Assembly (NCBI GenBank): GCA_003194525.1 | Contig: NBIV01000052.1 | Coordinates: 1 to 64,000, forward strand | Length of the DNA: 64,000 nt | DNA from: Gracilariopsis chorda | Lineage: Eukaryota > Rhodophyta > Florideophyceae > Gracilariales > Gracilariaceae | Direction: 5' to 3' | Shown: positions 7,538 to 62,485 of the stretch, one piece after another | Position numbering within the stretch: position 1 is the first letter of the stretch | How the letters are laid out: each line of letters opens with the position of its first letter | Program-made: the position numbers and the translations under genes | Notes under the pieces: generated by a model | Database searches by the model: none | Told to the model about the DNA's origin: nothing | What the model saw: the letters and a program-made list of their open reading frames with translations, nothing else

Positions 7538-7780
7538 TGTAACAAAGCAGTCGTAGGGTAGATGCTTCGCACGAAATACGACTAAAGAGTCGGAGACAAG
7601 GTCTAACCGCCCCCTCTAAGCTATCAGCCTGGGGCGGGATTTATTTATAGAAGTTGTTAGGTCAAGCTAGGGCTGCGTACCTGGCTTGATCCAGCATGGA
7701 GCTTCCTAGAGAAGCGGCGAGACACGAAGGATGTGGTTGTGGTATGGGGTGAACTACTATGCTAATGTTGTGTTGTTGCA
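7538..7780 (-). repeat. 5' LTR of element B, 243 bp
   Basis: It is the TG...CA partner of 2416-2660, two bases shorter. A TATA-like box (CTATAAATAA on the minus strand) lies around 7641-7650. The right edge abuts element I sequence. Confidence 0.92.
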
Positions 7781-7785
7781 CTATC

Positions 7786-41558: not shown

Positions 41559-41560
41559 AC

Positions 41561-41684: not shown

Positions 41685-43847
41685 ATGGATAACCAACAAC
41701 CCAACCCAAGGAACGAAGACCAACAAGGAACCCCGGGAGCAGCTGCACCTCCCGCAGTCGCCGTAACCCCATTGGCCGCCCAAGCGGACAATAATAGTGA
41801 CCGTAAAAGTACCCGCAGCCGCTCCGGTGGACGTGTTATAGACCCTGTGGACAATCCTGAAAGGATACCCAGAGATTCGCCATTGGTCGCTCGCCTCCGC
41901 GAGAGGATGGATCAGCTTAATCTTCCGCAAGGCCCAAGGAATGATGCATAACAGCCTCAGGACTTAGCTGCTACCGTAACCACCCCCCGTATGGTGGACG
42001 ATGTCGCCGCTCTCTTATGGCCACAACTCCGCTCTTGGTGCCAAAATCAAGTGGAGCAGTTCCTTAGGGACCAACTGGATAGACTATTACGGGAGCGCCT
42101 CTCCTCTATGGCAGACCAACTGGTTCCTCAGGTTGTGCATTCAGATGTCCTCGTGGAGTCCATTGCCACGACCATCCAAGGGGATATCACCCGCCAGGCA
42201 GGCACATTTCACAGCCCCCGGGCTGTTTCTCAAACATTACCATTGGATGTCCATCGGTCAACACACACCGGACCTCAGGGAACAGCTATAGAAGTAGCCC
42301 CTCGCCTGGGTACAGCACAGGAAGGCCCATTGGGTTATATATCGCCTGGAGAAGAGAGACTCCAGAGGCAAAGAGGCCCTGCGGGAGTTAAGAACAATGG
42401 ACAACATGGCGTTCGGTACGCCAACGAATACCTCGAGGACGATGAAGAGATCGCCCAAAAGGACCTCGTAGATACCGAGAAATATAGGAAGAAGAGACGC
42501 AGCCGAAGGCGTAAGTCGAGGACAAACCATCGGAAGAGGCACCACTCGGACTCGTCGGACTCTTCCGATACCGATACGGATGAGGCGGATGTTCGGCGCC
42601 TCAAACCATTGGTCACGACTAATGAGCTTTTCCAGAAGGTCTTAGACGTGAAGACGTACCGTTTGATGGATTGGTCCACGCGGTACATCTCTTCGGTCGC
42701 CAAGAAGACTGCCAGGTCGGCGAAGAGAAGGCAACTGACCGTCCCGGACAAGTTTTCTGCGAAAGATCCCATTACAGTCTTTAGGTTCGTGAGCTCGTTC
42801 CAGGTGGCCTCTGACCAGAATGGAGTCCATGAAGGAGGGGCGCTTTATTGCTTCCAGTTTTTCCTAAGTGGACAAGCAAAGGACCAAGTGGTTGCCAAGA
42901 TCTCTGGCTCGGCCAACCCCATTGATGCCCGAGATCGGGAGCTCCTAAGGACCTATCCAAAGGTTGTTCATTACCTGTTTGAAATGTATGCGACTGATGA
43001 CCACATAATGGACGCCTATCAGGACGTAATTGGATACCACCAGAGTTCCAGCATGTCTGAAACGGATTACGCCGACCAACATTGGACTAGAGCTCGCAGG
43101 TGCGGGAATGTGTTCTCCGAGGGTCGGCTAAAGCGACATTTTATCGTGGGATTGCTCCCTGCGATACGAACTCATGTCCAAAACCACCACACCGCCCATA
43201 CGGACTTGACGCTGCGTCAACTGGTCACGTATGCCGAGGGATACGGAAAGATCTATAGGACTTCCCGTCGAACGGGTAACGCGGATACTAGGGGTCGTGC
43301 AAGACCTCTGACCACAGGAGTGAAGGCCCACATGTTAGAGTCCCCGTCGGAATCGGAATCCGCCTTTGGAAATTCAGACACCGCAGATGCTCTTGCGGTG
43401 AGCTTCTCCTCAGCTCTATCAGGAGCACCATCGGCCTTTTCGTCAGGAACGACCACCCCATCGGCCCCGGCGACACCCCGTTATTATCCGATTGTCCCCA
43501 GGAAGGAAATCATTACGAAGTCCAATCAGGCCATTTATATTTGTCTTTCCACGGCCTGGCCGTGTGACCGCATAAAGTATATGCCTGAAGACATCCGCAA
43601 TGGCATTATGGTGCGAAGGGAGGAGAACTATGAGGTGCGCCAAGCCGAGGGTTACGTCCGTAGGACCTTCCCTCCGACGACCACTGGAACGCCAGGGAGC
43701 TCAAATTATGTGACTTTCCTGACCACACCGGTGAAGCAACCTGAGGTCAACATGGTTGAAGACCCAAGGGATAGCGTCGAATACCTGGACGGACAAGGCG
43801 ATCTTGCGGTGCCCACGCCGCAGGAAAAGGACCAGAGGGACGCATAG
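41685..43847 (+). pseudogene. gag: Element C Gag (one in-frame stop)
   Basis: The frame starts at ATG 41685 (MDNQQPNPRNEDQQ) and runs 720 codons with one TAA at 41949-41951. It has a disordered N-terminus, a helical segment (WPQLRSWCQNQVEQFLRDQL), a Lys/Arg-Ser-Asp region near 42480-42590 and the Ty3 Gag core (ITVFRFVSSFQVASDQNGVH ... CGNVFSEGRLKRHFIVGLLP). The expected CCHC knuckle near 43540 is not intact (YICLSTAWPCDRI), whereas D keeps one. Gag is long for a Ty3 element because of the N-terminal extension, which D shares. Confidence 0.85.
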
Positions 43848-43957: not shown

Positions 43958-44650
43958 GTGTATGCTGTGGACCAATGGGAAGACCTGGAGGACGCTGTTT
44001 GTGTCCTGAGGAAGGATAACTACAAGGTACATGAAACCTTGGGACTACAGGCCAATAACACAAGGACATTTACGGCCGTATTGGATACTGGAGCAGGCCC
44101 CAATCTGCTGCATCCGAAGGTCTTACCATTGGGCTGGGAAAGGATGATACAGGAAAAGAAGTCACCGAAGGTAGCGGACGCATCACGTCGGCCGATGGAC
44201 ATTCGCAGAATACTTCCGCTTTACGTCCAATTGCATCACCTGAAGGTTAAGACTTGGTTTCTGGTATGTCTGAACCTGGGGGCAGAAGGGATCCTAGGGA
44301 CGAGCTTTATTGATAGATATGTTAAGGCAATCTATCCTGGCCAAAAGAGGGTCGCTTTCCATCGAGGACCACCATTGGCGATTGTCTGTTCGCGTCCTGG
44401 ACCCGAGGCTGCCCCAACCAAAGTCAAGTTTCCCACGAGGACCGTGTCCAACAAGGTCAGATTGGCAAAAGCGATAGTCATACCGCCTATGACCCAGGTA
44501 GCCACTGCAGCGGTATGCGAGTCCTCAGGTCTGTTTTTTTTTGCAAAATCATCCCAAGTTGGTAACGAAACACCTTTCCCTCATGGCCAATGGAGTAATG
44601 AATGTGGTACCGAACCGGCCCTTTGCGGTCCCGATGAGCAAATTCCTTGA
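43958..44650 (+). CDS. Element C protease
   Basis: Aspartic protease with AVLDTGAGPNLLHPKVLP, where DTG is the active site, followed by a flap region and LGAEGILGTSFIDRYVKAIY. It begins in a different frame from gag, which ends at 43847, so expression needs a frameshift or there is an indel. The frame leaves the RT frame at a run of nine Ts near 44532-44542, a likely indel site. Confidence 0.85.
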   Translation: MYAVDQWEDLEDAVCVLRKDNYKVHETLGLQANNTRTFTAVLDTGAGPNLLHPKVLPLGWERMIQEKKSPKVADASRRPMDIRRILPLYVQLHHLKVKTWFLVCLNLGAEGILGTSFIDRYVKAIYPGQKRVAFHRGPPLAIVCSRPGPEAAPTKVKFPTRTVSNKVRLAKAIVIPPMTQVATAAVCESSGLFFFAKSSQVGNETPFPHGQWSNECGTEPALCGPDEQIP

Positions 44651-46308
44651 CAAGCCTACAAGGCTACCCAAGGGTGCAGTGGTGGGGGTATCTATGCCTG
44701 CTCCAGTGGCCATTATGGAGATTGATGCGGAGAATTTGCTTCCTGGGGGTGAACCACCGGCCAATTGGGAAAACGAAGTCAACCTTGGCGATGACTTTGA
44801 ACCATATAGGAAACAAGTCATTGATCTCCTCAAGAACTTTGTTAGCATGTGGAGTGGAAAACTGGGCGAGATCGATGCCACAAGGCATCGAATTGACCTT
44901 AAGGACGGGGCCACACCCCAATATCAGCATCCATATCGGACTGGCCTAAAAGGACGAGAGGTGGTAGCCAAGAAGGTTGAGAAAATGAAGTCCGCTGGGG
45001 TCATTGAGCGTGCACCATCCACTGAGGCCGAATGGGCTAGCCCTTTTGTCCTAGTGGCCAAGAAGGACGGGACCGTACGGTTTTGTATTGATTACCGCAA
45101 ACTAAATGCGGTGACCAAGAGGGATACTTACCCTATCCCTCGTATGGACGACTGCTTAGATTCCCTCGGGGACGCGCAAATGTTTACCACGTTGGATGCC
45201 AATTGTGGGTATTGGAAGGTTCCCAGGGACGACAAGGCGAAGTCGCTGACTACCTTCACGACCCACGAGGGATTATTTCGATTTACACGGATGCCCTTTG
45301 GTCTTATGAACGCGCCAGCTACTTTCCAGCGGGCCATGGACATCATTTTGTCCAGCGTCAAATGGAAATTCGCCTTGGTCTACCTAGATGATGTGATCAT
45401 CTTTTCCAGGTCCATTAGGGAACACTTCGCACACGTGAAGGCAGTCCTTAGGTTACTCCGGCAGGCTGATGTCACACTGAAATTGAAAAAGTGTTTCTTC
45501 TTCCAGCCCTCTGTGGACTATCTTGACCATGTGGTCCTGCCGGGTAAACTCCAAATGGCACAAGTTACAACAAAGACCATACAGGAAGCACGAACCCCTA
45601 GGACCCATACAGAATTGTGCTCCTTCCTTGGCCTTTTTAATGTTTACCGTAGGTTTGTCCCAGGATTCGCGAAAATTGCAGCACCTCTCAATGAGATGCT
45701 GAAGAAAGGGACCCCTTCGGAATTTGACGACCTCACGGACGAGCAGTATGAGGCCTACCAGAAGGTCAAGGACCATGTGGTTAATCCGCTGGTCTTGGCG
45801 CTACCGGCCAATAGGCCAATAAACCGTATATCATAGATACGGATGCATCTGCGACCCAAGTGGGCTGTGCCCTCCTAGAAGAGCAGGAGTCACCTAAGCA
45901 TTATCGCCCAATTGGCTACTGGAGTAGGTCCCTGACCAAGGCCGAAAGGAAATATAGAACCACGGAAAAGGAATGTTTGGCCATCGTGTGGTCAGTGCTC
46001 CATCTTCGGCCTTATCTGGAAGGAAATCGCTTTACCATTAGGACAGATCACCACTCCCTCCGCTGTTTACTAAACATGACGGACGCATCCTACAGTCTGG
46101 CCCGATGCGCCTGGCCGAATTCGATTACGAAGTGACCTATAGGCCAGGGCTGAAAAATCAGGCCGCAGATGCACTGTCACGCATCTTGACCGATGGTACG
46201 GACCAAACTCCCCTGGACGATGAGATTCCCACCATCTGGGACGGACCACAGTACACTGATGGCGAGGGAGAGGAACCACCGGTGGCTAAGGTGAGAATGG
46301 TTGAATGA
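44541..46308 (+). pseudogene. Element C reverse transcriptase-RNase H (two frameshifts)
   Basis: RT blocks: PYRTGLKGREVVAKKVEKM, SPFVLVAKKDGTVRFCIDYR, motif A MFTTLDANCGYW with its Asp, MPFGLMNAPATFQRAMD and catalytic YLDD in FALVYLDDVIIFS. RNase H continues after a one-base shift near 45825 (IDTDASATQVGCALLEEQ, EKECLAIVW, RTDHHSLRCLL) and after another near 46100 (MRLAEFDYEVTYRPG ... AADALSR). All catalytic residues of RT and RNase H are present; only the frame is broken. Confidence 0.92.
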
Positions 46309-46326: not shown

Positions 46327-48177
46327 GTGATCTTATGCGCCGTGGACTGGGAAGATCCACCGTTGGATATCCATTCGGCCCGGTCAGAAAGCGCGGATTT
46401 TACGCCAAGACCCCTCGAGGAATTGCTTCAGGCCCAGAAAATGGACGAATACTGCGCCCAGATAGGAGAGAAAGTAGGGAGCCCTGGGTCGCTGTTTTAT
46501 TATGACCGCCGAGGCATATTATGTCGCAGGTCACCATGGGACGGAGCGATACAGCGGGTAGTGCCTAAGGCCTTACGGGCACGCATTATTTACCTCGCGC
46601 ACTACCCGAGGTTGGCTGGCCATCATGGAGGGACTAAGATGTATCAGAAGCTGAGGAGATATTTTTACTGGCCCCTGATGGCCAATGAAATAATGGAGAC
46701 TGCAAGGACGTGTGCAGCATGCGCAAAGATCCGAGGGACAATAGGGGTACATCAAGGTAAATTGAGGTTATTCCCAGCGGCTGGGCCTTTGGAGTTCATT
46801 GCCATGGATGTCCTAGGGCCATTTCCGAAGTCGACCCACGGCAACCGATTTATATTGGTGACTACCGATCGGTTTACCAAGTTGACCCGAGCAATTCCGC
46901 TCAAATCAACAACCGCCACGGACGTCGCCATGGCTTACCTTGTCCATGGGATTTATCCCTATAGACTGCCACTCTATCTCCTTACGGACAATGGCTCCCA
47001 GTTTATCTCCAAATTCTTTGAGCATGTTTGCTCGGCCTTAGGTCTAAAACATCTCCTCACCACCGCGTACCATCCTCAGACCAATGGACAAGCCGAAAGG
47101 TTTAACCAAACCCTGGCCAAGAGGCTAATTCACTACGTTTCCGAGCACCAATTGGACTGGGATGACTATGTCCAGCCTCTGGTCTATGCATATAATAATC
47201 AAGTGGATAAGTCCACTGGTACAGCTCCTTTTGATCTCATCCTCGTACAGGCCCCTGCGCCGTACATGGTTGACCTACAGGACTTAGGCGCACCTCAGGA
47301 CATAATGGAGGAAATGACTCCCGCCCAGGCCAAACGGTATTCGCGGAAGCGAATTGATTCTATCTCGAGAGCCGCACAGACCACGTTGGACAAAGTGCAA
47401 GAGCGCTATAAGGCCGATTCCGATCGGCCCGTTTGGTTTACACCGCAGGTGGCCGTGGGAGATTACGTCCATTTAGACCGACCACCGAAGGAAAAGCCCG
47501 AGGACGAGGACATCACCAACAAGCTGTTGCCAAAGTCCACTGGGCCCTTCAAGGTACTTATATTTCTTGGTCACACGGTTACTATCGACCGAGATGGGCT
47601 CCAGGACACAGTCACAATAGACCGAGTCTCTCTGGCGCCACGCCCACCTTCAACTGGACCATTGGACTCGTGCGCTTTCCCTTTGTCCCAAACCCCACCC
47701 TCCATCCCTACGCCACAACGGTTCAATGACCCTACAGGCCCTCAGGAACCGCAGGTCTCCGCGGATCCAGAAGGCCCTTACCCCGATAGCTACGGTCCCC
47801 TGGACGAAATGGCACTTCCTGAAGAAGTACCCAACCCTATAGAAACCCCCGACGCTGTTCCTTCGGACGCTGACGGGTATGGTCCCCTCGACCACATGGA
47901 CCTACCGGAGGACGCCGGAATGAACGATCAACGGGAGCATTTCGTTGACTGCATCGCCTCCGCTGGGCTCACCGACGATGGCAAAGTGCGCTACAAAGTC
48001 CGTTGGTATGGCTATGAGCCCAAGGACGATACTTGGCTTCCGAGGTCAGATATCCCGGATAATTTTGTGGCCCGCTACTGGTCAAAAACAGGCCACTCGG
48101 AGCTGGACCTTAAGGAGGGGGGTATCCTTGGCCACAAAATGGCACCAGCACAGGCCCAATCCGCCTCCACCCAATAA
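46327..48177 (+). CDS. Element C integrase with C-terminal chromodomain
   Basis: The 616-residue open frame has the zinc part (HYPRLAGHHGGTKMYQKL ... CAACAK), the DDE core with Asp in IAMDVLGPF and YLLTDNGSQF and Glu in QTNGQAERFNQTL, an SH3-like tail (VAVGDYVHLDRPP), a proline/aspartate-rich linker with repeated YGPLD motifs, and a chromodomain near residues 535-595 (VRYKVRWYGYEPKDDTWLP). It is one of the few intact frames here. It would insert the cDNA and direct it to chromatin. It ends about 150 bp before element D. Confidence 0.93.
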   Translation: MILCAVDWEDPPLDIHSARSESADFTPRPLEELLQAQKMDEYCAQIGEKVGSPGSLFYYDRRGILCRRSPWDGAIQRVVPKALRARIIYLAHYPRLAGHHGGTKMYQKLRRYFYWPLMANEIMETARTCAACAKIRGTIGVHQGKLRLFPAAGPLEFIAMDVLGPFPKSTHGNRFILVTTDRFTKLTRAIPLKSTTATDVAMAYLVHGIYPYRLPLYLLTDNGSQFISKFFEHVCSALGLKHLLTTAYHPQTNGQAERFNQTLAKRLIHYVSEHQLDWDDYVQPLVYAYNNQVDKSTGTAPFDLILVQAPAPYMVDLQDLGAPQDIMEEMTPAQAKRYSRKRIDSISRAAQTTLDKVQERYKADSDRPVWFTPQVAVGDYVHLDRPPKEKPEDEDITNKLLPKSTGPFKVLIFLGHTVTIDRDGLQDTVTIDRVSLAPRPPSTGPLDSCAFPLSQTPPSIPTPQRFNDPTGPQEPQVSADPEGPYPDSYGPLDEMALPEEVPNPIETPDAVPSDADGYGPLDHMDLPEDAGMNDQREHFVDCIASAGLTDDGKVRYKVRWYGYEPKDDTWLPRSDIPDNFVARYWSKTGHSELDLKEGGILGHKMAPAQAQSASTQ

Positions 48178-48331
48178 GAACACTGCTTTTTGCCACGGCG
48201 CCCACGGAACCGCCTCCCACGCCGCCCCACTCGCTGGCCGCGCGCCAGTTCTTCCGAAGATTTACCACGATGATGACCAACTTGGACGCCACATAACTGT
48301 GAAGTCCCTGGGTCATCCAGGCGTAAGACCG
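48178..48331 (+). other. Element C sequence left of element D
   Basis: About 150 bp after the chromodomain stop that does not match the D LTR. It is probably C sequence from between the chromodomain and the antisense frame. The junction with D is not a clean LTR end. Confidence 0.5.
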
Positions 48332-49032
48332 AGGCGACCCTTCGCGACTAGCCCAAGAGGGTTTAAGACAAGAATCGGTATCCGCGAGAGCGGGAATGCG
48401 TCCTCGCCAGAGGTAAGTTTCCACGTAAGTGGGGGTGTGTGAGCGGATGCACACACAAGAGCTGCGGATAGCGGGAGATGCTACCCTTAAAAGGGGAAAA
48501 GGGAAGGGCGAAGAGGAGGAAGAGAGGACGAAGTGAGTCGCGAGAGCGACGGGGGCGAACGGCGATGCCGGTAACAATATCCCTATACAGGGCGAACCAC
48601 CAATGCAATTGGAATAATATGACTCCCAGTGATGGGTCCCTTTAGATGTGCAAGGGCGTTAGATGTACCGTGGTTCACGGCGTTTCCCTCCAAGGAGGAA
48701 TAGAGCACGCGCGCAAGCGATAACAACTAGAGCCCATTGCCCAGGTTGGGGTCCCTTGTTGGGGAAGATTTACTGGTGCGACGGCAGTGCGCCGTCGCAC
48801 TAAGTACTAGCTTCCCAGAAATGGGTGTGGAAACAATAATAAAACTAACTAAAATACTCCACATTCCGTGGCAACATCCACTACTGTGGCCAACCGCCAA
48901 GTGACCCAAAACCGTGTCCCACGTGTCTGTATCCACCATTGTGGGGCGTAGTTCATATACACACTAAACAACCGATAATATCGGGAAAGCATTCAAGTAC
49001 CAAGAATCCCTCCTTGAGGGCGTTGCACTTCA
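48332..49032 (-). repeat. 3' LTR of element D (truncated, about 701 bp)
   Basis: It matches the 5' LTR from its TGAAGTGC start at 49032 to about 48332 and then diverges abruptly. The last 120-125 bp (through TTGCACCACA) is replaced by unrelated sequence. Identity to the 5' LTR is in the low-to-mid 90s percent by eye. Confidence 0.9.
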
Positions 49033-49043
49033 TATCCCCCCTA
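49033..49043 (-). other. Polypurine tract of element D
   Basis: On the minus strand TTAGGGGGGATA directly precedes the 3' LTR start (TGAAGTGC). Confidence 0.8.
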
Positions 49044-49086
49044 AGACGGGAAAACAACCGCGGACGCGGAGGGTTCCCAGACGAAA

Positions 49087-50925
49087 ATGGGTGATAAAAG
49101 CGCGTGCGCCGTCTCCGGTTCTCCGGTAACTTCCTCTGCATCAGAGTCAATAGCCCCTGATATCGCAGCTGTTATTTCCTCGCCTCACCTTTGCACTTCC
49201 TCGTCACCGAGCGCACTCCGACAAACAACAACAACCACCCTCGAAGGGGGAGAAATAAACCACGACAACAACATCAACAACAACAGCCAGCCTCCGAGGT
49301 CTCTTGGGCGATACACCACCGTTTTCCGGTCAGTTCCTCTGCCTCAGAGCGATCAACAACCGGGAAATGTGGCTGCTGTAGCCGACCATCCCTTCGCACT
49401 ACCACCTTCTGTGGGATCCTCCGGAACCGCTCCGGTGTCCAACTGGCCAACCTACAACACCCTGGTGCGGCTCAACCCGATGAATCGGAATCACGCGCCG
49501 CGATTGCGCCTTGCCACGTGGCTTCACCCGGTTGCTGTCCTCAATGAGGGATTGGTCACCGCTTATGCGGATGGCTCAGACACCCTTCCGGGGAATCTTC
49601 CCAGAGCAGTCACCACATCGTGGGGTTGGCGTCACCGGATTGCGATTCCGCGTCACTACCTCCGAGGGAATTTGGGCGAGACCGTCGCTGCGGCGCAGAC
49701 CACGTTGACGCACATGGCCTACCAACGGCAGAGCCGGGCTCCATTCGATGTACCGGTCCCACCGGAGTTTGGCTTCGACGTTAGCCACTTCCGCACTCGC
49801 GGGGATATTGGGTACGGCGAGAACCTGCTACGTCTCAAGACCTCCGCTTGGAGGGATTTCCCCGCAGCGCGGCAAGAAGCCCTTTGTTGGGAGCGACCGA
49901 TTATTCGGGCGGAGTTCAGGTATCCTCCCCGGCAATAGCGGTCCAACTTTCTCCAAAGCTTCTTCCGCTATGAGTGGCATCGGCGATCCCGATTCGGGTA
50001 TTTCATCCCGTATCAGAACGTGGAGATAGAGCGGATTGCGCCGCCTCAGCGACTAGGTCAGTATGTAGCACTCCCCGAGTGGTGTCGCTTCCATGAAGCC
50101 TGCTGGGGTTGCTACATAGAACTCCCGCCAGTACTTACGTACCTCGGTTCGCTGCTCATGCAGGATCCCCGGTCGGGGTTGTGGTCTGTAGTGGTTACGG
50201 AGTGGGCGGCCCGCACTGCGGTTTATATCCTCAACGAGCCGTACGACCAGTATCGTCCCTGGTTCTTTCCACCGCGTATGCAGGCAGCGATCCACAATTT
50301 GGATCTTTGCATCCTCCTTGGGGGCCATGCCAACAAAGAAGAGGTCCTCCAATTACTTGGGTACATCGACAGCGTTAGCTGGAGTGAGGTCCCGCTGGAG
50401 CAAAGCGGTCGTCTGGATGGCGGTAGCGGTAACACCGGTGGTCCGGGACTGGGTAGAAACACCGCCCTTGCGGGGGATTTTATCTACTTCGACCCCTGGG
50501 AGTTGCGGGAAATTTCCTCCTAGGAGGCGCGCGAGCTTCACGATGCGCCCGGGCATGTGCCGGAAGATCACCCGGTGGAGTACGTCGATTCCGACGCTTA
50601 CTACCGCGCATACGGCGGGGATGACCCAATGGTCGATAACGAACTGGAAGAACCCGGGGAGATGGACGTAGAAGAAACCGGCGCTAGCGCGGAAGCTTTC
50701 CCAGAAAGGGTACCTCCGGCCGAGCCGGCTGCTGACCCTTCGGCGGCGAGTGCCGGACCTTCTATCCCCAGCGGGGTGACGGCGAATGAAAAGGAGATCA
50801 TCGCACGTTTTCTCCGGGGTGCCGGTCTAAGCGCTGTCGAGGTATCGGGGGATGTCACCGCCATGGCGGACGCTTTGGCTTACCGCCTTGCGGGTGGTTA
50901 CGCCCCAGACGATGGGGGTGAGTGA
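49087..50925 (+). pseudogene. Antisense open frame of element D (two in-frame TAG)
   Basis: This frame lies opposite to gag-pol and starts at an ATG 55 bp inside the 3' LTR (MGDKSACAVSG). One frame runs 613 codons to TGA at 50923-50925, broken only by TAG at 49936-49938 and 50521-50523. It has a Ser/Thr/Asn-rich N-terminus, a middle part rich in Arg, Trp, Tyr and Pro, a block YFIPYQNVEIERIAPP, a helical stretch (LLMQDPRSGLWSVVVTEWAA), a leucine-rich run (LDLCILLGGHANKEEVLQLL) and an acidic C-terminus. A similar frame lies at the same place in element C. It meets the chromodomain gene tail to tail, 190 bp apart. Its function is unknown; antisense frames of this kind are known in some plant gypsy elements. 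Confidence 0.7.
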
Positions 50926-51115
50926 AAGCACTTGTCCAGTTCCCTAGTTCTTCTTTCCTGGCATCGCCAGCTAGTGTAGTATAGTGTTGTGGGGAGCTAG
51001 CTGCTCCCTTGGATAAACTTTCCCGTTTAGAACGGTGATTCTCGTTTGAGTTCCCCGTCTTCGACAGACTTTACCTTGTTATTCTTTCCTATCGCCCTCC
51101 GCTCGCGCGGCAACG

Positions 51116-51865
51116 TTACCCAACTTGGGAATTTACAAGCGTGGCTGGAGCTGCACTTCCCGTTTGACGGTGGTATCGCACGACCTGCGACCGTGGGAGG
51201 TGTTCGATTGGCTGCCACGTATCCCCACTGGGGTCATACCCGTACCAGCGGACGCGGTATTGTAGAATACCATCCTGGTCCCAGGTGTGTCCGACAAGTC
51301 GGTCTACTACGAACTCTCGTTCGTAGACCTGCCGGCCGTGCCGGGTGGTGGTTGTACTCCCTTGTGAGCGTTGCCCGCAGTGCGGTATAATGTCCCTTAG
51401 CAGGGTGTTTGTCGATAACTCCGGCGTTGCCGTGCGCTGTGGGAGCGGCCACTGCTCGTGCTGGAGGATATCCCTCAAGAGGGTTTTTGGCGTCATGGTT
51501 TTCACCGCCAAGTCATTCCCCATTGGGGCGGGGTCGTTTCCGCTTTCGCAGTATTGCGGGCGATCTGCCAGTTGGCGGGGGACTTGGGCTCCGCCTTCGC
51601 GGTTGAGCTCACGAACCGCGAGTTTGCGGGAAGACGACCGCTTCTGCGGAATCGGCGTTTCCACGATCTCCGGGGGGGTCCCGTGCGACACCGTGATTGG
51701 ATGGCAAACCGCCTCCCTGCCAGGCGCACGAGCGCTCTGCACCATACGTTCCGGCGATGCCGTGGTGTCCCCGGCTACTGACGGGTGGCCTGGGGATAAC
51801 TCCGGTACACAGGTATTTTGGTCAAAATTCCCCTTTGGGGGGTGCCGGGCAGGTGCCGATGACAC
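51116..51865 (-). pseudogene. Element D pol tail with chromodomain
   Basis: A 249-residue frame. The C-terminal 60 residues form a chromodomain (YEREFVVDRLVGHTWDQDGI, LQYRVRWYGYDPSGDTWQPI) very like that of element C. The region before it is a disordered linker with a repeated motif (KTLLRDILQH and NTLLRDIIPH). The link to the integrase is frameshifted near 51880. Confidence 0.85.
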
Positions 51866-51885
51866 CCTTTTCAGGGGCTTGGCCG

Positions 51886-52803
51886 CTAAGTGCGTTGCAC
51901 CGTCTCCACGCGGGGGAGCGGCATCCAGTATGACCGGTTTCGAGAGTGCGATGGCGCGGTTTTTTCCGAGTTCCTCGGTTCTTCCCCGCAGCGTTGCGGA
52001 AGTTGGGGTAAATTATTCCCCGGAATGGGGGCTTTGATTCCGTCGACGACGGGATGCGTTTCCAGTGCTTGCGCACCAGTGTTCCGTATGTTACCTGTTT
52101 CCCGTTGTGACGGCGATATCGTTCCTCGAATACGAGTGTTCTCCTCCCCCTCCTTAGACGGAGCGGCGGGATAAGGGATAACATTCCCAGCCTTGCGGGT
52201 GTAAATTCGTGCCAGGGGGGTGGGCGTGTTAGGGGCGCACGCTGAGAGGCCCGAATAACCCGGCTGAGCCGGTGAGTCCAACAGGGTCGGTAGGTCTGAT
52301 ATTCCCCGGCTGGGGTGTGGTAGTACCGTAGGCGTAGTACTCCCGGAGCATTCCGGTGTTGCAGAGTCCGTAGAAACGGGATGTCCTGAATCCAGGATTA
52401 CCTCTGAGGAGGGAGGGGGGGCGAGTACGACACGATCGCGGGAGATTCGCTCGTGTGCTCCGCCTATCTGTACAACGACATTGTCGGCATTAATAGAGAT
52501 GACCTTGAAGGGCCCGTCCGCCACAGGCGAGAGTTTATGACGCTTCTCCCGTTCCGGGTTGTAGTAATCCTTCCTGATGAAGACGTAGTTATTTGCCCGA
52601 ATCGGGGGGGTCTTTCCTGGCAAGCGAGCATCAAAATCACGCTTGTAAGCGGCTTGGGCCCGTGCCATAGACTTCCGCGCAGCACGGACCACCTTGGGAA
52701 GCCATTGCTTCCATTGCTGCCCGTAGATACCCATTGATGGGAAATTGTCCAAGGTAGCTTGGGGTTCCAGCGCCACAGGCGGGGGTGTTCTAGATAGAAC
52801 CAA
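51886..52803 (-). pseudogene. Element D integrase C-terminal part
   Basis: Continues the integrase after the catalytic core: RAQAAYKRDFDARLPG, IRANNYVFIRKDYYNPE and DGPFKVISINADNVVV, the SH3-like tail. A proline/threonine-rich linker follows. It runs out of frame into the chromodomain segment. Confidence 0.8.
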
Positions 52804-53765
52804 CTCGAATTGCGAAACTCCGGTAGTCCGGTGTACCTGCGTATTGTACGCGTAGGTTACCGCATCAGCGTAGAGATCCCAATTCTTTTGGTGGTCAGCA
52901 ACGTAGGAACGTAGCGCCGCGAGTAACGTCCGGTTAAACCGTTCAACTTTCCCATTACATTTGGGGGTGGTAGGTAGTTGTGAACAAGTTCTTTACATCC
53001 AGGATGCCACAAAAATCCTGCAAGAACTTGCTGGGGAATTGGTTCCCGTTATCGGAGAGCACCTCCACAGGAGGACCGTAGACAAAAATTACAGTGGCTC
53101 ACCAGAGCCTGGGCCACCGTGAAAGTGGTTATCCTCTGAAGAGGGACAGTCCGCACCAGCTTGGAAAAGCGGTCGGTAATGACAAGTAGAAACTTGTTTC
53201 CACGTTTTGCGGTAAGTAGTGGTCCGAGAATATCAATTGCGATAAACTCGAGCGGCGCCCTGGCGGGGAATAGTTTCATCTTCTTCGCATTTTTGGGGAG
53301 CTTGACGCGATTCTTCGCGCATTCGCTACAGCACCGCACAGTTGCGTAGCAATCTACCGCCATGGCGGGCCAATAGAAATCCCTTCGTAGGGTTAGGTAG
53401 AGTTTTCTCCCACCTGGGTGACGTCCCATGGGGGCGTAGTGTGATAGATGAAACACCTGCGATTGCAGGGAATGTGGTACCAGAATCTGTGAGCGGGCTT
53501 CGACCTTCTGGACGAGGTAGCCCTTGTCGTCCACCCCTAAAGGGAGATCTTTACCACCGTTAAGACGGGCACGAATCCTCGTGCAGAAGGGGTCACCGAA
53601 CTGTTCTCGGATCATCTCTTCCGGTGAAACCGGTACAAAATTTCCCGGTAACCGGTTCTCAGATTCATTTCGCGATGCGAGTAGGTCGTCAAAGTCAGCA
53701 TCCTCGTCCCAGTTTTCTGGCCCAGCCTCGACGGCACATTCCTGATCATCCGGGTCTATGGCCAT
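52804..53765 (-). pseudogene. Element D integrase zinc part and catalytic core (frameshifted)
   Basis: The zinc part reads HYAPMGRHPGGRKLYLTLRR ... CSECAK; the first Asp is in FIAIDILGPL. After a shift near 53090 the frame gives VEVLSDNGNQFPSKF with the second Asp, and after an extra A near 52970 it gives CNGKVERFNRTLL with the Glu. All DDE residues are therefore present across three frames. The zinc part follows RNase H with only an in-frame TAA between them (53862-53864). Confidence 0.87.
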
Positions 53766-55385
53766 GAAACATGGGACTTCATCATCCTCCGTTGGGAGTG
53801 CTTCCCCACTTTTGGGTAAACGCGACAGGGCGTCAGCTTGGGTGTTCTGCGCGCCCTTCTTTTAAATGACTTGGAAGTCATATTCCGCGAGGCGGAGTCT
53901 CCAGCGCAATTGGCGTCCCGACAGGTCGGAGATATTCATTAACCACCTCAGTGAGGAATGATCCGTGTACACGGTGAAGTGAACTCCCATAAGGTAGGGG
54001 TGCAGAGTGGTCATCGCCCATACGACGGCGAGGCACTCTTTCTCCGATACGGAGTAGTTCCGCTCATGAACATTGAGCGCGCGCGACCAATAACCAATTG
54101 GGTGTCGTTCCCCCTCGGGGGTGGTTTGAAAAAGAGCACACCCGACTTGGTAGTCGCTCGAGTCCGTATCTACGGAGTATGGCAACCCAAGGTTTGGCAG
54201 ATGTAGGATTGGTGCTGATGTGACAGCCTCCTTCAAGGATTTAAAGGCTTCCGATTGCTCGGGCGTAAATGTTCCCAGTTTTGAGGGGTTCCCCTTTCCC
54301 AACAACGCGTTCAGGGGCGCCGCGGTGTCCGAAAAGCTCGGGGTAAAGCGTCGATAGAAATTGACCAGCCCCAAAAAGGAGCGCAGTTCCGTTTGAGTAC
54401 GGGGCTCTTTCGCCTCAACGAGGGATCTGACTCGAGCTTTCTCGATCGCTATCCGTCCAGGACGGATAATGTGACCCAGATACTTCACAGTATTTGTGAC
54501 GCATTTCCCCAACTTGAGGGTAATTGCCGCATCGCGGAGTACGGTCAGCACGTCTCGGACGTGAGTGAGATGGTCGTCCAACGAGTTGGAGAAGATGATA
54601 ATATCATCAAGGTAGACCAGACAACTCCGCCACTTAAAGCGGTTGAGTAGAATATCTACTGCACGCTGAAAGGTGGCGGAGGCGTTGGTTAACCCAAATG
54701 GCATCCGCTTGAAGCGGTACGTTCCTGCGTGGCAGGTGAATGCGGTTTTGTCGCGATCCTCCTGTCTCACAGGTACTTGCCAGTATCCCCAATTGGCATT
54801 GAGGGCCGTGAACACGGTGGCGTCTCCAAGGGAGTCAATGCACTCGTACATACGAGGGATAGGGTACGTGTCCCTAACAGTCACGGAATTGAGCCGGCGG
54901 TAGTCGACACAGAACCTCCAGGTTCCGTCGGCCTTTAAAGCCAGTACAACTGGGGATGCCCAGGGTGATTGAGCGGGCTCAATCACACCTGCGCGGAGCA
55001 TCTTGTCCACTTGGGACTGCTCCTCTTCCCGAGCTTTCGGACCTGCCCTGTAAGGGGGTTGTGCAACCGGTCGCGCACCGGGGATTACATCGATCCGGTG
55101 GTCCAAGCGAGCCATTCCACATTGTGGTGAATTCCCGTAACATGGTACGGAGTTTGTCGCCGTGCGACTCTGGCACGTGGCTGAAGTCCAACGCTTCAAG
55201 TGCCTTTTCCGGATCACTCCGGTCGTTGCTCGATGGAGCATTGTCCTGTGGAACAGGTGTGGTTCCCAATTCCGAGTTACTCGGTGTGTTCGACGCTGAC
55301 GTAGCGGTTTCCTCCCCCTCCTTAGACTTGACGTCTTCGGACGGCGGGGCGAATTCCTCAGAAGAGGTGGTAGCTCCGAGTACAT
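53766..55385 (-). pseudogene. Element D reverse transcriptase-RNase H (motif A Asp lost)
   Basis: From about 55110 the frame reads YRAGPKAREEEQSQVDKML, SPWASPVVLALKADGTWRF, then motif A VFTALNANWGYW, where the catalytic Asp is Asn, then MPFGLTNASATFQRAVD and intact YLDD (CLVYLDDIIIFS). RNase H is complete (VDTDSSDYQVGCAL, EKECLAVVW, YTDHSSLRWL) and runs in frame through one TAA (53862-53864) to NTQADALSRLP. The motif A change is a G-to-A on the coding strand and would abolish polymerisation. A frameshift near 55110-55130 separates this from the linker. Confidence 0.92.
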
Positions 55386-55425
55386 CGGCGGCTGTCATCT
55401 TCGTTCGCAGCATTCCCATGGGATG
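54979..55425 (-). pseudogene. Element D protease-RT linker
   Basis: The frame starting near 55419 gives an acidic linker (TSSEEFAPPSEDVKSKEGEE) and then HGDKLRTMLREFTTMWNGSL, which matches the C element (RKQVIDLLKNFVSMWSGKLG). It is out of frame with both the protease before it and the RT after it. Confidence 0.7.
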
Positions 55426-56312
55426 GGGGTTATACTCCCAATTACTTGGTGTTTTAACAGATACTGGGGGTGTTTACCAAGGGTGGCCACCAATATCCGG
55501 AAAGGAACATCCGGGGAAATGGAGACAATTCCAGTAGCCAGCGCCAGCTGGGATTTCTCGTACAACGAGGCGAGGGGTTTTATAACCCGAAGAGCGTGCT
55601 GACGGGAATTTACCTGCACCCAGACTTGGGACTCAGGCGGTATAAAAACCGAGGCAGCGACGCGGAGCTTGGTGTACTCGCGGGACGCGGGCGGTAGTTC
55701 CTGCGCAGCAGGGAGCGGAACTTGTTTCCGAGAGGACCGCTTTAGCGGGCGGCGAACAATCGGAACTGACGATCCGTCGTCAAGTTCTGCACGCCTGAGG
55801 CGGGGCCTGATTGCATCTACAAATCTGTCGCAGTAATCACATCCCAGTATCACTGGTGCTGCCAATGAACGGCAAACGATGAAGTCCAACTTCACCACAG
55901 AGGTACCAAGTCTCACGACGAGGTCCACTATGCCAACCGTTTGTAACGGATTGTTGTTCGCATCCGAAATGTCGGGGACCGCGTCAGAGCGGATACGAGA
56001 CCGCACAAGCGGGGGTAACAATGATTCCACAACAAAGTTGGGGCCTGCACCTGTATCCAGGACGGTGAGAAACCTCACCATAAACTGGGGATCAAGGCCA
56101 AGGTCGGCATAGACCTTATAATTGCGCTTGGCCAAGACCAAGACTCTACCGGGAATCCGGGGATTTTTACTCCGTATCCACGGGCGACGCAACACACCGA
56201 GGTGCGCAGAGTCTGCGTCAGCGGTGTCTTTCCTCGAGAGGACTTTCACCGGGGAGCGAGGCGAACACGCCTTGGGCGCCAACAGCCTCTTGTTTGAGGA
56301 CGCCTCTCCCAA
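55395..56312 (-). CDS. Element D protease
   Basis: A 305-residue frame with the aspartic protease block FLTVLDTGAGPNFVVESLLP, intact DTG, then APVILGCDYCDRFVDAI, the C-terminal protease block. The same DTGAGPN motif occurs in element C. It is preceded by a basic linker after gag. Confidence 0.87.
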   Translation of the reverse strand: MGEASSNKRLLAPKACSPRSPVKVLSRKDTADADSAHLGVLRRPWIRSKNPRIPGRVLVLAKRNYKVYADLGLDPQFMVRFLTVLDTGAGPNFVVESLLPPLVRSRIRSDAVPDISDANNNPLQTVGIVDLVVRLGTSVVKLDFIVCRSLAAPVILGCDYCDRFVDAIRPRLRRAELDDGSSVPIVRRPLKRSSRKQVPLPAAQELPPASREYTKLRVAASVFIPPESQVWVQVNSRQHALRVIKPLASLYEKSQLALATGIVSISPDVPFRILVATLGKHPQYLLKHQVIGSITPIPWECCERR

Positions 56313-56407
56313 AGGGGAGACTCCCTCAGTTAGTTTTCCGCCTTCGGCGGTGGGTTGGTTTCCTCAACAACGAGTGATTCATCCCGTTGACGGGGGTTTC
56401 TATCCGC

Positions 56408-58465
56408 CTAAGCGGGGGTTGCAACGGATGGTTGCGCGATCTCCCGAATCGGGGTGTATGAAGCTTGCCGCGCACGCGGGGTCTGTGGTAGGGCATGGGA
56501 AAAGTCCGTTTTAGCACGGAGGTAGGAAGCTGTCGGGACGGAACGTTTCTCCTCTGGAGTGAGGGCCTCATAATTTGCCATTACCTTGGCCATATCCTTC
56601 AGTGAGCAGATACACTGAGGGGAGGTATGGCCATGGGCATAACATAGGTGGCAAATGAAAGCCAAAACCGCGACACGCGGATTATTATTCCGAGTATCGG
56701 AGAAGCGAACCGCAGGGCGGGTGTCAGTCCATCCAGGCCGTTGATAACGGGATTAACCGTTTGAAAACGGGAGTCGTTGGGGTTGGACCCGACCGTTACC
56801 ACCGTATAGAACGGGATCTTCTGTTCCCGTATCACGGGTCATCTCCGTCGTTGACGGCAAATCACTAGTGGGTATCGACACACCATCCCCGTGCGCTAAA
56901 TGCACGGTATCAAATCCCTGTCTAGGGTTCCCATCCGCAGTGAGTGGGAGCGATGAGGAGTCGCTCTCCATCATCAACGCCTTGGCGGATTTAGACCGAT
57001 TGTTCGCGGTTCTTGCACGAAGTGCATCCCCTTCCGCTCGAGCGTGTTGGACCAGCTCGAGATAGGTGATCCTCCGCTTTTCCTCCCGATAACGCGTAAC
57101 TAAACTACGGATTGCCGGGTCAAGACCATCGATGAACATGGGACAGCGCTCCCCAGCGGGTTATACGTTACCACATCTGTGGAAAGCCTTGTTAAGGCGC
57201 ACCGAGTAATCGGTCTCGGTCTCTCCAGCACGCTGGCGTGTATCTCGCAAAGCGAGGATAGCCTGCTGAATAGCAGTGTTTGTGGCGTAGGAACGCAGTA
57301 GATACTGCACCGCTTCCGGCCAGCAAGTAACTCCTCCCTCGGAGGCGCGAGAAGATCCTCTGACAGAGTTGTATTGATCCTCCGCCAATCCCCGTAGGAA
57401 ATACGGTAAAGCCAAATAGGCTTGTCCCTCAGTCATACCGAGGATATTGGCCTCCGCTACAAAGCGGGATAAGAAATCCAGTACCAGGACTGGGTCCTCT
57501 CCAGTAAAATGCTGGTTGCGGAGCGAGAGCTACACTCGCTTAATGCATTCTCGCACCTTTCCTGTACCACGGGGCGTACGTCCAAGTGAAGAATCTTCGA
57601 GCCGGTATTACCGGTATGATAATAACTTCCGGTAATCTGGGTTTGTTGGTTTCAACTCCCGGAGACCGGGGTGTCTTCTCCCCTTCTGGCGGGTTCGGAC
57701 CACACCTTGAGTGGCCGATGACCGCTTCGAGCGGGAGGAGTAGCCTCGCTTCTCGTCCTCCGAGTCGGAGTCCGAGGAGCTCGAGCTAACCGAATGGTTT
57801 CGGGATGAGTCCGACGATGTCGAAGAATCAGAGTCCGAATATTTTCGGTGAGGTTTCCGTCGAGGACGGCGTTTCTTCTTCCCAGCAAGCTGGTCGTTGT
57901 GCGATGCCTCGTTTACTGGATCATCCGGGGATGGTTTGTCCATGAGGACTAACTGCTCCAGCGTCTCCAGGCGGGCACCAATCTGATCAAATCGGGCTTC
58001 AACTCCTTCGATGAAGGTGCCGGTTTGTCCCAAACTCTCCAACACGGAGTTGACATCAGACCGTAAAATACGGAGGTCCTTGGCAACCCCTTTCACAAGG
58101 GTTGCCATGACCACCTCTTGGAGGAATTTCAATTCCCCTACAAGGGTGTCGTGGGCGGTCCACAGGGCGCGGGCCTTGGAATCCAGGGATGTCCCCTGGG
58201 GTGTGTTTTCGACCGTTCCACGGGAGTTTGATACCGCGACAGCGGGAGTCCATGCATCATTTCCCTGCGGGAGTGACAACGAGGGCAAAAGAGTGTTCCG
58301 GGGTTCCCGGGATTGGTTTGAATTCCTCGAAGAGGGTCCACCAGCGAAGCTGGAGCCGATCCGCTTCGGAATGCGGGATACGAACCGAGCTTCGGGGACT
58401 TCTCCACCATCGTGGGAACGACTGCGGGTGACCGCACGCTCCGCATCAGAGGATTGCCTCGACAT
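56408..58465 (-). pseudogene. gag: Element D Gag (four in-frame stops)
   Basis: One continuous frame from ATG 58465 (MSRQSSDAERAVTRSRSHDG) to TAG 56408-56410, about 685 codons, with stops at 57608 (TAA), 57530 (TAG), 57161 (TAA) and 56753 (TAA) and no frameshift. It has a disordered N-terminus, a Ser/Asp/Arg region (KYSDSDSSTSSDSSRNHS), the Ty3 Gag core (EDPVLVLDFLSRFVAEANIL, RLNKAFHRCGNV) and an intact CCHC knuckle (CHLCYAHGHTSPQC). The 57530 stop aligns with a Gln in element C. Confidence 0.87.
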
Positions 58466-58550
58466 GAGGAGCTACCGTCACGACGGAAACGATTCCGGAA
58501 CTTCCGGGAAGTGGAAGACGAACCTCGAAAGAGGGAAAACAAACACCGAT

Positions 58551-58567
58551 TCTAGGTCGGGAAACCA
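58551..58567 (-). other. Primer binding site of element D
   Basis: On the minus strand TGGTTTCCCGACCTAGA lies three bases after the 5' LTR. It matches the C site at 16 of 17 positions. Confidence 0.75.
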
Positions 58568-58570
58568 CTT

Positions 58571-59395
58571 TGTGGTGCAACGCCCCAAAGGGGAAAAACA
58601 CCGAAAGGCGTTCGAGATCTTTCCTCCGTGGAGGTGAACCCAGTTCGGTAAAGCCCCTCTAGGGGTGGCATGGCGGAGCCAGTTTGTAAGACCGAGGCCG
58701 CCCTTCGCGACTAGCGCAAGAGGGTTTTGGAAAAGAATCGGTATCCACGAGAGCGGGAATGCGTCCTCGCCAGAGGTAGGTTTCCACGTAAGTGGGGGTG
58801 TGTGAGTGGATGCGCACACGAGAGCAGCGGATAGCGAGAGATGCTACCCTAAAAAGGGGAAAAGAAAAGGGCGAAGAGGAGGAAGAGAGGACGAAGTGAG
58901 TCGCCAGAGTGACGGGGGCGAACGGCGATGCCGGTAACAATATCCCTATACAGGGCGAAACACCAATGCAATTGGAATAATATGACTCCCAGTGATGGGC
59001 CCCTTTAGATGTGCAAGGACGTTAGATGTCCCGTGGTTCACGGCGTTTCCCTCCAAGGAGGAGTAGAGCACGCGCGCAAGCGGTAACAACTAGAGCCAAC
59101 TCCCCAGGTTGGGGTCCCTTGTTCGGGAAGGTTTATTGGTGCGACGGCAGTGCGCCGTCGCACTAAGTACTAGCTTCCCAGAAATGGGTGTGGAAACAAT
59201 AATAAAACTAACTAAAATACTCCACATTCCGTGGCAACATCCACTACTGTGGCCAACCGCCAAGTGACCCAAAACCGTGTCCCACGTTTCCGTATCCACC
59301 ATTGTGGGGCGTAGTTCATATACACACTACACAACCGATAATATCGGGAAAGCATTCAAGTACCAAGAATCCCTCCCTGAGGGCGTTGCACTTCA
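58571..59395 (-). repeat. 5' LTR of element D, 825 bp
   Basis: Full LTR. On the minus strand it starts TGAAGTGCAACGCCC and ends GGGCGTTGCACCACA, so its ends are inverted repeats of about 15 bp with two mismatches. A 10-bp-arm hairpin (GTGCGACGGC-AGTGC-GCCGTCGCAC) lies at 59139-59163. Confidence 0.95.
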
Positions 59396-59592
59396 AACGA
59401 AGCGCCGATGGCTCACCTATAAGGAGAGTGTGCCAAAACCCCAGGGACTTGTTTTAAAACCGACGTAGTAGTATTTAAGGGTAGAGATGAAGACCAATTG
59501 AGCGCGACAGAGAAGGCGCACACCTTGACGCTTGAAGGGCCAAATAGGGAACCATAGTGTTTACTGAGGACTACTGGCCATAAGGACGACCA

Positions 59593-61907
59593 CTAGGACG
59601 ACGCAGCCGGTTGAGAAGGGGATCCCGTGCGGGCACGCTTGCGAGCCGGACTCCGGAGGGAAAAGGACGAGGCACCACCAGCGGACTCCGTGTCCGAGAG
59701 GTTAAGACCAAGGCGGTTACCAAGGTCTGTCGCGACACGCTCGGACAACACCTTAGAGTTATCCTCCAGGATGGTCGCTAAAGCGTCTTTGACCTCTTGG
59801 TTACACTGAACCAGCGAGTGGTACCGCGAAGCCCGGCGAGCCCAGGATTGGGCGGAACGAAGAGCCTCTACGATACTAGTGGGCTCAAGGATACCGACGG
59901 ACGTGCATACCTTCTTCAGGTCATCGAAGGCCATCGTAATGACCTCTGGAATAACCGGCACTGGAGGTGGAGGAGAGAAAACAGGGGCGGAAACCTTCAT
60001 GGACGTAGGACGTGGGGAAGCCAAGGGACTGATGGACGCCTCTGGGGGCTCTTCCACGGCAACCTCATGCGCTGGCACGAAAGACGGCGCTACCGATGGG
60101 GCCAGTACATGAACTACCGCCTGCTACTGGACTGGAGGACGAAGACAATCTTCGTGAAACCCGATGGCCTGAAGATAGTAATCCGGCACGGACTGACGCG
60201 GCTCGTTCAAGGGGACAGCCAGCAATGGTTTGGCCTGGTAGACGTTCCCGTTGTCATTGCCTAAAGGATGTCGCGGGATCGGAAAGAAGGTGTCGGTGTC
60301 ATAATCGTACCAAAGGAACCCGGGGGTCTGCGCCCAGTAGACCTGAAGGACATAATCCAATAGGGCCTCGGCCTCTTCACTCTCGTACTCCGTACCCCGG
60401 ACAACGTTTTGCACTCCCAACTCACGGATGAGCCGGATCAAGGGCCGCGGAAGGGGCACGAGTCGGCCTTCAGGACTGGGAAGAACTCGTTCGTTCCAGA
60501 TACGGCAGTCGGCCTCCCGGACGTTAGCTTGGACCCCATAGCGGGCGGTATCCAGAAAGTCCATCAAACAGAACACGGCCCGTTCGGCAAAAAGAACCTG
60601 CCAGATCAGCCAGGGGAGACGTTTAGTGAAGTCCCCCTGGAGCTGATATGTGTGGTAGGCCACCATGGGCGGAGTAGGGACCATAAGGAGATTGAAAACG
60701 TGCCAGATGGCAGCCTCAGGTCCGGCGCTAAGTGACGGTAGCATGAGATATAGAGAAGGCCTGCGGGACGGAGGCATATAGTGAAATTCCACTTGGTGCC
60801 AACAGAAGAAGTACTTGAGGTTGGTTCGAATACGACCATCGGGTTCGATCATATCGTTCCAATAGGTCCGGTTCGATAACCAGTACAAGCGGTTGTATGG
60901 AGGCCTGAACCAGACTAACCCCAGGAAGCTATGACCAGGGGGAGGAAAGAGGGCCATAGGGTCACTATGCATCGAATACAAGTCCTCCAGGAGCTTGTTT
61001 ATCTCCATTAGTAATCAGACTCCCTGCCGCAGCGGACGAAGGGCATATCCGGTGGGACCAGAGCGCGGCAACGCGCGACCGAACTGGCATCAGCAGGAAG
61101 GTGGAGCCAACGGTTGTACCAGGAGTCCTCTTGGGAGTTCTACTTCGCACGGGCATAGTTGGGGATCACAGCGAACTGCCGGGCGTCCAAGTATTGATCA
61201 GCATACCGCACAAACTCGGCGACCAAACTGGGTAGATGGGTACTCCTCACGGCCATAGGATTCCGACCCAAAGTATGGTCGTACTTGTCCCCGGGGGGGC
61301 CATATGCGCTGCTGGGGACCAGAGCCATGTTGGTCGAGTCTACAGTTATTACCACCCAAGGGATACGCTCGAAGCCGTCATAGTCCAAGAGGAAGCCATT
61401 GGAGCCCTTATATGCCCCGGAGGACATGGCGTAGACGCGATCGACAAGCCGGCACAGCGGACACGGCGCCAGAGGAGACCAACGGTCAGGAATCTGAAAG
61501 GCCAAGGGAATGCACCGCGATCTACCGAAAGAGCGGGTATGGTGGATGCACCAAGGCGGTATGCGAAGAAAAGAGCGACCAGAAGGACGAGGTAATCCAG
61601 AGGGAAGTATGGGCGCCCGCGCCAGGGGCCGGTGAAATGCAGGAGCACGAGGAGTGCCTCGCCGTTGAGACTCACTAGTTAATGAGGCCCACTCGTAGGC
61701 GACCAATGGCATGGTAGCGGCCATGTGCCACTTGCCAAAAAAGCAGCCAAATGGACGCAAACCGGTACCGCCGCCGTACTTGCTGTGGAAGGGCCTACCA
61801 GCCATGTCAACCAGGAGGCGAGAGACCTTGTCGGGAGAGAGGACGCGAGGACAACAACCCCATTGGGAGGGAGGAAAGAACGCCAGCGGAAGAAAAGGAT
61901 AGCTCAC
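59593..61907 (-). pseudogene. Antisense open frame of element C (broken)
   Basis: Opposite to C gag-pol and next to the 3' LTR. A first segment (61907-61140) has a likely start at ATG 61805 (MAGRPFHSKYGGG) and ends in TAG. The same frame stays open after that TAG to about 61010. After a frameshift, 61008-60124 reads MEINKLLEDLYSMHSD ... YFFCWHQVEFHYMPP ... PLIRLIRELGVQNVV, ends in TAG, and continues in frame (60078-59593) through SVGILEPTSIVEALRSAQSW to a basic tail (SPARKRARTGSPSQ), possibly a nuclear signal. The order and the YF-x5-VE block match the D antisense frame. The function is unknown. Confidence 0.68.
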
Positions 61908-61940: not shown

Positions 61941-61954
61941 TAAGGGGGAAGGTC
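61941..61954 (+). other. Polypurine tract of element C
   Basis: TAAGGGGGAAGGTC directly precedes the 3' LTR start (TGTAGGAG). Confidence 0.8.
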
Positions 61955-62480
61955 TGTAGGAGAATGAAAATTGGGCAGATGCAGTGGTGAGGTAACCATG
62001 GGGCTGGGTTGGCAGAGGTCAGAACATTGCTGGCCGACATATTTTACGTGGCCAAGCTGGGTGCCTATGCAGGAGATAAGAGGGGACAGTGCGAGTGCCA
62101 AGGCACTGTGGCCGTAGGTTTTATTATGTAGCTAATTTTATTTATTTTGGTAGGATAGCGTGCTGAGGTCAGAGCGTCTCGCCAGCTATATAGGCTGGCT
62201 CGAGTGCCGCCTATCTCCGAAGTGTAAAGAAAAGGACCCTCGCCGTCTTCTTGCCGCCATATGCAGCCAGTAGGACTTTAAAGGCCTCCAAGCCTTCGCT
62301 ACCATTCTCCCGACCTGTAGGGACTTGAGATAGCGCCCGCCCATTGGGCCTCGCTACCAATTGGTGCCCGCGTGACTAGTAGACCCGGTGGATTGTCACC
62401 CCAGTGGCTGGCTCTCTGCCACTACTACCCCCTAGTAGACTACTACCCCAGTTGGCCAAAGGACGTAGTATTCTACTATA
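61955..62480 (+). repeat. 3' LTR of element C, 526 bp
   Basis: Runs TGTAGGAGAATG to TTCTACTATA; the terminal CA of the 5' copy is TA here, probably a C-to-T change. It is followed by ATTAC and the continuation of the pogo transposase. Confidence 0.95.
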
Positions 62481-62485
62481 ATTAC

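What the first reader, a model, noticed from the sequence alone, without database searches (positions are those of the whole stretch)
49087..61907. Two related Ty3/gypsy elements each carry an antisense gene at the same place
In both C and D an extra long open frame lies between the chromodomain and the 3' LTR, on the strand opposite to gag-pol, starting close inside the LTR (55 bp in D; within about 50-150 bp in C). D keeps 613 codons in one frame broken only by two TAGs; C keeps most of its frame with one shift and two TAGs. The two proteins share an ungapped 26-residue block (YF-x5-VE ... P ... R ... LP, 9 identities) followed by similar helical and leucine-rich parts in the same order. Antisense frames are described in some plant gypsy groups (Retand, Ogre-like and others); I know of none described for a non-plant lineage like this. 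This looks like a conserved third gene of unknown role.
Basis: partly seen in the sequence, partly recalled or inferred. Interest (0 to 1): 0.88.

Follow-up and report, generated by a model that had tools for sequence, protein, structure and literature searches.

The report
Antisense third gene in algal retrotransposons
Jumping genes of the gypsy type in a red seaweed carry, besides their usual gag and pol genes, a third gene written on the opposite DNA strand; natural selection has kept it in several distantly related element families, and its protein is predicted to fold into a compact shape for which no match was found, but its job is not yet known.

Summary
Two nested chromovirus-type Ty3/gypsy elements (inner about 48.3-59.4 kb, outer 41.0-62.5 kb) each carry an antisense frame between the chromodomain and the 3' LTR. 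Both window copies are decayed, but the host genome, inferred to be the red alga Gracilariopsis chorda, holds many relatives: 8 of 20 inner-family copies read have a complete ATG-to-stop frame of 595 or 615 codons. In six element families the gene is convergent with a chromodomain; of 34 listed chromodomain/aORF pairs within 3 kb, 33 are convergent. Inner- and outer-type proteins are homologous (hhalign E 2e-10; best of 30 shuffled controls 0.16). Between-family dN/dS, where not saturated, is 0.12-0.25, and lowest in this frame. Variants shared between inner-family copies contain no stops and show under half the neutral N/S; singletons look neutral. A 373-residue core is predicted at pLDDT 90 and has no significant Foldseek match in PDB or viral models. 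Antisense genes at this place are known in plants and in fungal Boty, so this is a new variant of a known kind with its own protein family. A nuclear, nucleic-acid-binding regulator expressed from the 3' LTR is the likeliest role, by inference only; expression was not tested.

The parts
49087..50925 (+). inner element: antisense third gene (aORF), broken by TAG at 49936 and 50521, closed by TGA
   Evidence: intact sister copies
59596..61805 (-). outer element: antisense third gene (aORF), with TAG at 61140 and 60124 and a frame change near 61.0 kb
48321..49032 (-). inner element 3' LTR; its inner edge is 54 bp from the aORF ATG
58684..59395 (-). inner element 5' LTR, 95.2% identical to the 3' LTR over 710 bp
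49033..49045 (-). inner element polypurine-tract-like stretch next to the 3' LTR
   Evidence: read; assignment inferred
51116..51865 (-). inner element: end of pol with chromodomain (Pfam PF00385, E 1.6e-9)
53049..53861 (-). inner element: integrase zinc-binding region (PF17921)
53862..55385 (-). inner element: reverse transcriptase and RNase H
57608..58465 (-). inner element: first frame after the 5' LTR, gag by position (no Pfam match)
   Evidence: name inferred
41032..41559 (+). outer element 5' LTR
61954..62482 (+). outer element 3' LTR, 91.1% identical to the 5' LTR
61942..61952 (+). outer element polypurine-tract-like stretch next to the 3' LTR
   Evidence: read; assignment inferred
41991..43847 (+). 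outer element: first frame after the 5' LTR, gag by position (no Pfam match)
   Evidence: name inferred
44541..45836 (+). outer element: reverse transcriptase
46327..48177 (+). outer element: integrase and chromodomain (PF00385, E 6.7e-7)

Best explanation
Chromoviruses of this red alga have three genes. The third, the aORF, is a protein-coding gene lying antisense and convergent between pol and the 3' LTR. Shown: its place, intact frames in sister copies, purifying selection on the protein in the lineages that transposed, homology across families, and a confidently predicted globular core of 373 residues. Inferred: it is transcribed from an antisense promoter in or near the 3' LTR and makes an accessory protein that acts in the nucleus, binding nucleic acid or chromatin through its conserved Arg-rich segment and, in outer-type proteins, a basic C-terminal tail, so as to regulate expression or integration of the element. 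This is the logic of retroviral antisense genes and of maize Grande gene23.
For: Complete frames in 8 of 20 inner-family copies, two more open over at least 591 codons; 738-codon frame in an outer-type relative; 52 of 68 scored matches to P0004 without a stop in the aligned part (my count). Chromodomain on the opposite strand and convergent in six families; 33 of 34 listed pairs within 3 kb convergent. Homology: hhalign E 2.1e-10, 30 shuffles at best 0.16, reversed 0.11. Selection. Fold: pLDDT 89.7, pTM 0.89. Basic tails in L012, L061, P0004, P0005, P0006 (read). Analogues.
Against: No transcript, protein, localisation or binding data; the regulatory step is analogy. The fold matches nothing with a known function. 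Inner-type proteins lack the basic C-terminal tail. In family E shared variants are no more constrained than singletons (0.80 against 0.81; 8 loci). For D' no chromodomain was seen in the 677 bp held beyond the gene, and one of 34 chromodomain/aORF pairs is not convergent.
Confidence: 0.5

Rival explanations
1. The gene is real and selected, but its product acts elsewhere: a particle, envelope-like or cell-to-cell factor, a counter-defence protein, or an enzyme.
For: The fold is unmatched, so no function is excluded by structure; several residues are nearly invariant (D56, R90, D107, R112, E116, Y119, R176, W242 of the core), which an active site or a binding site could explain.
Against: No clear membrane segment pattern was looked for beyond a hydropathy maximum, which was 0.95-1.85 in 7 proteins, the highest lying in a predicted internal helix; no enzyme family matched. 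Neither excludes it.
Confidence: 0.35
2. What matters is the antisense RNA, which silences or times the element through double-stranded RNA; the open frame is a by-product.
For: A review proposes this for antisense regions of plant elements (PMC7264820). The gene is convergent with pol, so overlapping transcripts are plausible.
Against: Constraint is on the amino acids: dN/dS 0.16 in this frame for F/E against 0.35-2.05 in the other five frames of the same alignment; no stops among shared variants of the inner family. An RNA role in addition is not excluded.
Confidence: 0.07
3. A host gene captured by the elements, or a chance open frame.
For: Two relatives are annotated in G. chorda as hypothetical proteins (BWQ96_03215, BWQ96_10156).
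Against: Both belong to families with several near copies in this genome. Inner and outer proteins are too diverged for a recent capture. 500 simulations reached 455 codons at most. An old capture as the first origin cannot be excluded.
Confidence: 0.05

Closest known systems
Plant Retand and Ogre elements with antisense ORFs (Transposase_28, PF04195; plant mobile domain, PF10536)
   Same: Antisense ORFs between pol and 3' LTR, shared by many elements, function unknown (PMC11963269 abstract and passages; PMC6317226 passages)
   Different: Those are non-chromoviruses of plants; no PF04195 match in this genome at E 10; neither family appears in Pfam scans of 11 aORF proteins at E 10
Maize Grande gene23 and rice RIRE2 antisense ORF
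   Same: Antisense gene between pol and 3' LTR; gene23 product is nuclear and has its own upstream promoter (PMC7264820 parts 1 and 2 of 3)
   Different: Plant elements; their proteins were not compared here; nuclear site and promoter not shown for the alga
Boty of Botrytis, antisense gene brtn
   Same: Non-plant gypsy element with an antisense ORF at the same place (PMC7264820; reference-list entry in PMC8365987)
   Different: Fungal; brtn sequence not at hand, homology not tested
HTLV-1 HBZ and other retroviral antisense genes
   Same: Antisense gene under 3' LTR control with a nuclear regulatory product (PMC11963269 passages; start of abstract of PMC10186651 in listing)
   Different: Vertebrate retroviruses; likeness of logic only, no homology tested

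Membership tests
Chromoviruses (Ty3/gypsy with chromodomain) | RT, integrase and a chromodomain at the end of pol | tested here: met
   Inner and outer: RVT_1, Integrase_H2C2 and Chromo. Chromo also in E, F and H above the cut-off and in G below it (E 0.003)
LTR elements with an antisense ORF between pol and 3' LTR (aORF-3R) | Long antisense frame between pol and 3' LTR, present in many copies | tested here: met
LTR elements with an antisense ORF between pol and 3' LTR (aORF-3R) | Frame under selection as a protein | tested here: met
   weak or absent signal within family E
Retand-type antisense proteins | Transposase_28 domain (PF04195) | tested here: not met
   0 matches in the genome at E 10; none in scans of 11 proteins
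Ogre-type antisense proteins | Plant mobile domain (PF10536) | tested here: not met
   not among Pfam matches at E 10 in 11 aORF proteins; the genome was not searched with it
Antisense accessory regulators (HBZ, gene23) | Antisense promoter in or near the 3' LTR and a nuclear product | not testable with these tools
   no transcript or localisation data at hand
Fungal Boty brtn | Homology to brtn | not tested
   sequence not at hand

The most novel reading that the evidence does not exclude
Red-algal chromoviruses share an old three-gene plan in which an antisense gene encodes a protein of a new fold that the elements need in order to spread. It was there before the inner and outer families split and has been kept since, independently of the antisense genes of plants and fungi.
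Probability: 0.5. Interest if true: 0.75.

Novelty: new variant of a known kind. Interest (0 to 1): 0.62.

Why it matters
Antisense third genes of LTR elements have no settled function, and a survey of plant elements found their extra-ORF proteins highly divergent, without a conserved domain common to most elements of a lineage (PMC6317226, passages). Here one protein family spans element families that have diverged to about 20-25% identity, with intact copies in number, a measurable selection signal and a confident structure model, in a genome of only 91 Mb. The function question becomes testable by strand-specific RNA, localisation and binding tests, and red algae join plants and a fungus as places where this arrangement occurs.

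Full report
What is there. The window holds two nested LTR elements. The outer one runs on the + strand from 41032 to about 62482 (LTRs 91.1% identical); the inner one runs on the - strand from about 59395 to 48321 (LTRs 95.2% identical over 710 bp). The sequences left and right of the inner element were placed separately in the 20 outer-family copies read: in 18 of 20 they end within about 20 bp of each other (in 5 of these the left flank matches at only 67-70%), and in 2 they match in part. So the inner element sits in the outer one, between its chromodomain and its antisense gene. Both have reverse transcriptase, an integrase region and a Pfam chromodomain, hence chromoviruses.

The antisense frames. 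Inner: 49087-50922 on the + strand, 612 codons, two TAGs, TGA at 50923. Outer: 61805 down to 59596 on the - strand, two TAGs and one frame change. Both begin next to a polypurine-like stretch and the 3' LTR and run towards the chromodomain. Both window copies are broken; intact relatives exist elsewhere in the genome.

Host. G000 has 91.3 Mb in 1081 contigs. Its contig C30 matches residues 1-491 of the G. chorda protein BWQ96_03215 at 100% and is at least 445,053 bp long; the protein's record lies on a contig of 445,473 bp. A second G. chorda protein, BWQ96_10156, matches at up to 99%. I infer Gracilariopsis chorda (Rhodophyta, Florideophyceae, Gracilariales). The rRNA search that would have tested this did not complete.

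Copies. A search with the inner aORF DNA had 779 first-look candidates, 40 scored; with part of the outer, 121 and 40. Twenty other places of each were fetched. Inner family: 8 of 20 have a complete frame of 595 or 615 codons with the same ATG and TGA, and two more are open over at least 591 codons. Outer family: 0 of 20 complete, longest open stretch 652 codons. Protein searches of the genome with P0004, P0005, P0006, P0008 and P0002 found further families; with P0004, 52 of 68 scored matches have no stop in the aligned part (my count). All these lists are capped. Open frames of 600 codons (F: L052), 645 (E: L053) and 738 (D': L061) were read; for G (L062) and H (L063) the table gives 643 and 664, but the pieces fetched lack their 5' ends (573 and 566 codons read).

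Orientation. On the strand opposite to the aORF and convergent with it lies a chromodomain in six families: inner and outer, E and F (E-values 6e-9 and 1e-8), H (3.5e-8) and, below Pfam's cut-off, G (0.003) (in G and H the pol frame is itself broken). For D' none was seen in the 677 bp held beyond the gene. Independently, 150 scored Pfam chromodomain matches (of 1784 candidates) were compared with 105 listed aORF places: 34 chromodomains have a listed aORF within 3 kb, and 33 of these 34 pairs are convergent, 29 of them with 245-290 bp between the matches. The one exception involves a D' place on contig C18. By my reading most of the close pairs are inner-family copies. What share of chromoviruses carries the gene is therefore not known.

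Homology. A profile of 13 inner-type proteins against 4 outer-type proteins gives hhalign probability 96.8 and E 2.1e-10 over 201 columns. Thirty column-shuffled controls gave E 0.16 at best and the reversed control 0.11. With 8 and 10 near-identical sequences alone the first comparison had given E 4e-5, probability 70. P0005 links to both groups (E 7e-15 and 5e-10). Relatives outside the window's genome: G. domingensis, and records without an organism name.

Selection. Of 12 between-family pairs, 6 give a finite dN/dS, 0.155 to 0.245, and 6 are saturated. F/E: 0.156-0.163, bootstrap 0.09-0.24. D'/D: 0.22-0.25, bootstrap 0.17-0.29. G/H: 0.12-0.20, unstable. The five other frames of the same three alignments give 0.35 to 2.05 and hold 11 to 27 stops each in the first sequence, so the aORF is the coding frame. 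Between F and E the aORF keeps 63% amino-acid identity over 537 codons, the chromodomain end of pol 41% over 99. Within families, near copies give 0.38 to 0.63 (3 pairs). Among inner-family copies, singletons sit at 1.03 of the neutral N/S with 20 stops; variants shared by 2-3 or by 4 and more copies sit at 0.48 and 0.42 with 0 stops. The outer family shows a weaker trend (0.83, 0.66, 0.62; 6 stops among variants shared by 2-3). The 8 E loci show none (0.81, 0.80). Selection in the transposing lineage with neutral decay after insertion explains the inner and outer patterns.

Mechanism. Shown: a selected protein gene on the antisense strand. Inferred: transcription from the 3' LTR, nuclear action, binding to nucleic acid or chromatin. 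The inference rests on analogues: Grande's nuclear gene23 product with its own promoter, Retand, and retroviral antisense genes (PMC7264820, parts 1 and 2 of 3; PMC11963269, abstract and passages). Nothing here measures it.

Known or new. [quoted passage not shown] Searches of the held library listed no paper whose title or abstract start describes one in a red alga; I saw listings only, each cut to its best rows, and subscription journals are mostly missing, so this is weak evidence of absence. I rate it a new variant of a known kind.

Noticed in passing
window 1-7800: Minus-strand Ty3/gypsy gag, protease-like, RT/RNase H and integrase frames followed by a second gag about 5.12 kb further on: a head-to-tail arrangement with repeats spaced 5114-5122 bp. 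No chromodomain match in its integrase frame and no aORF in the window there.
   Followed up: partly
window 10597-11307 and 25630-26342: Two more inner-type LTRs in the opposite orientation, each followed by a similar short stretch; no aORF match between them. Truncated copies or one rearranged element.
   Followed up: partly
window 21900-22370: Fragment with a weak PIF1-like helicase match (E 1.6e-4, below the cut-off), perhaps a Helitron remnant.
   Followed up: no
G. chorda proteins P0002 (BWQ96_03215) and P0008 (BWQ96_10156): Annotated as hypothetical proteins, yet each matches several near copies in the genome: probably retrotransposon genes entered as host genes.
   Followed up: partly
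inner-family copies L043, L045, L046, L049: A 595-codon form of the gene, shortened in the variable N-terminal tail relative to the 615-codon form.
   Followed up: no
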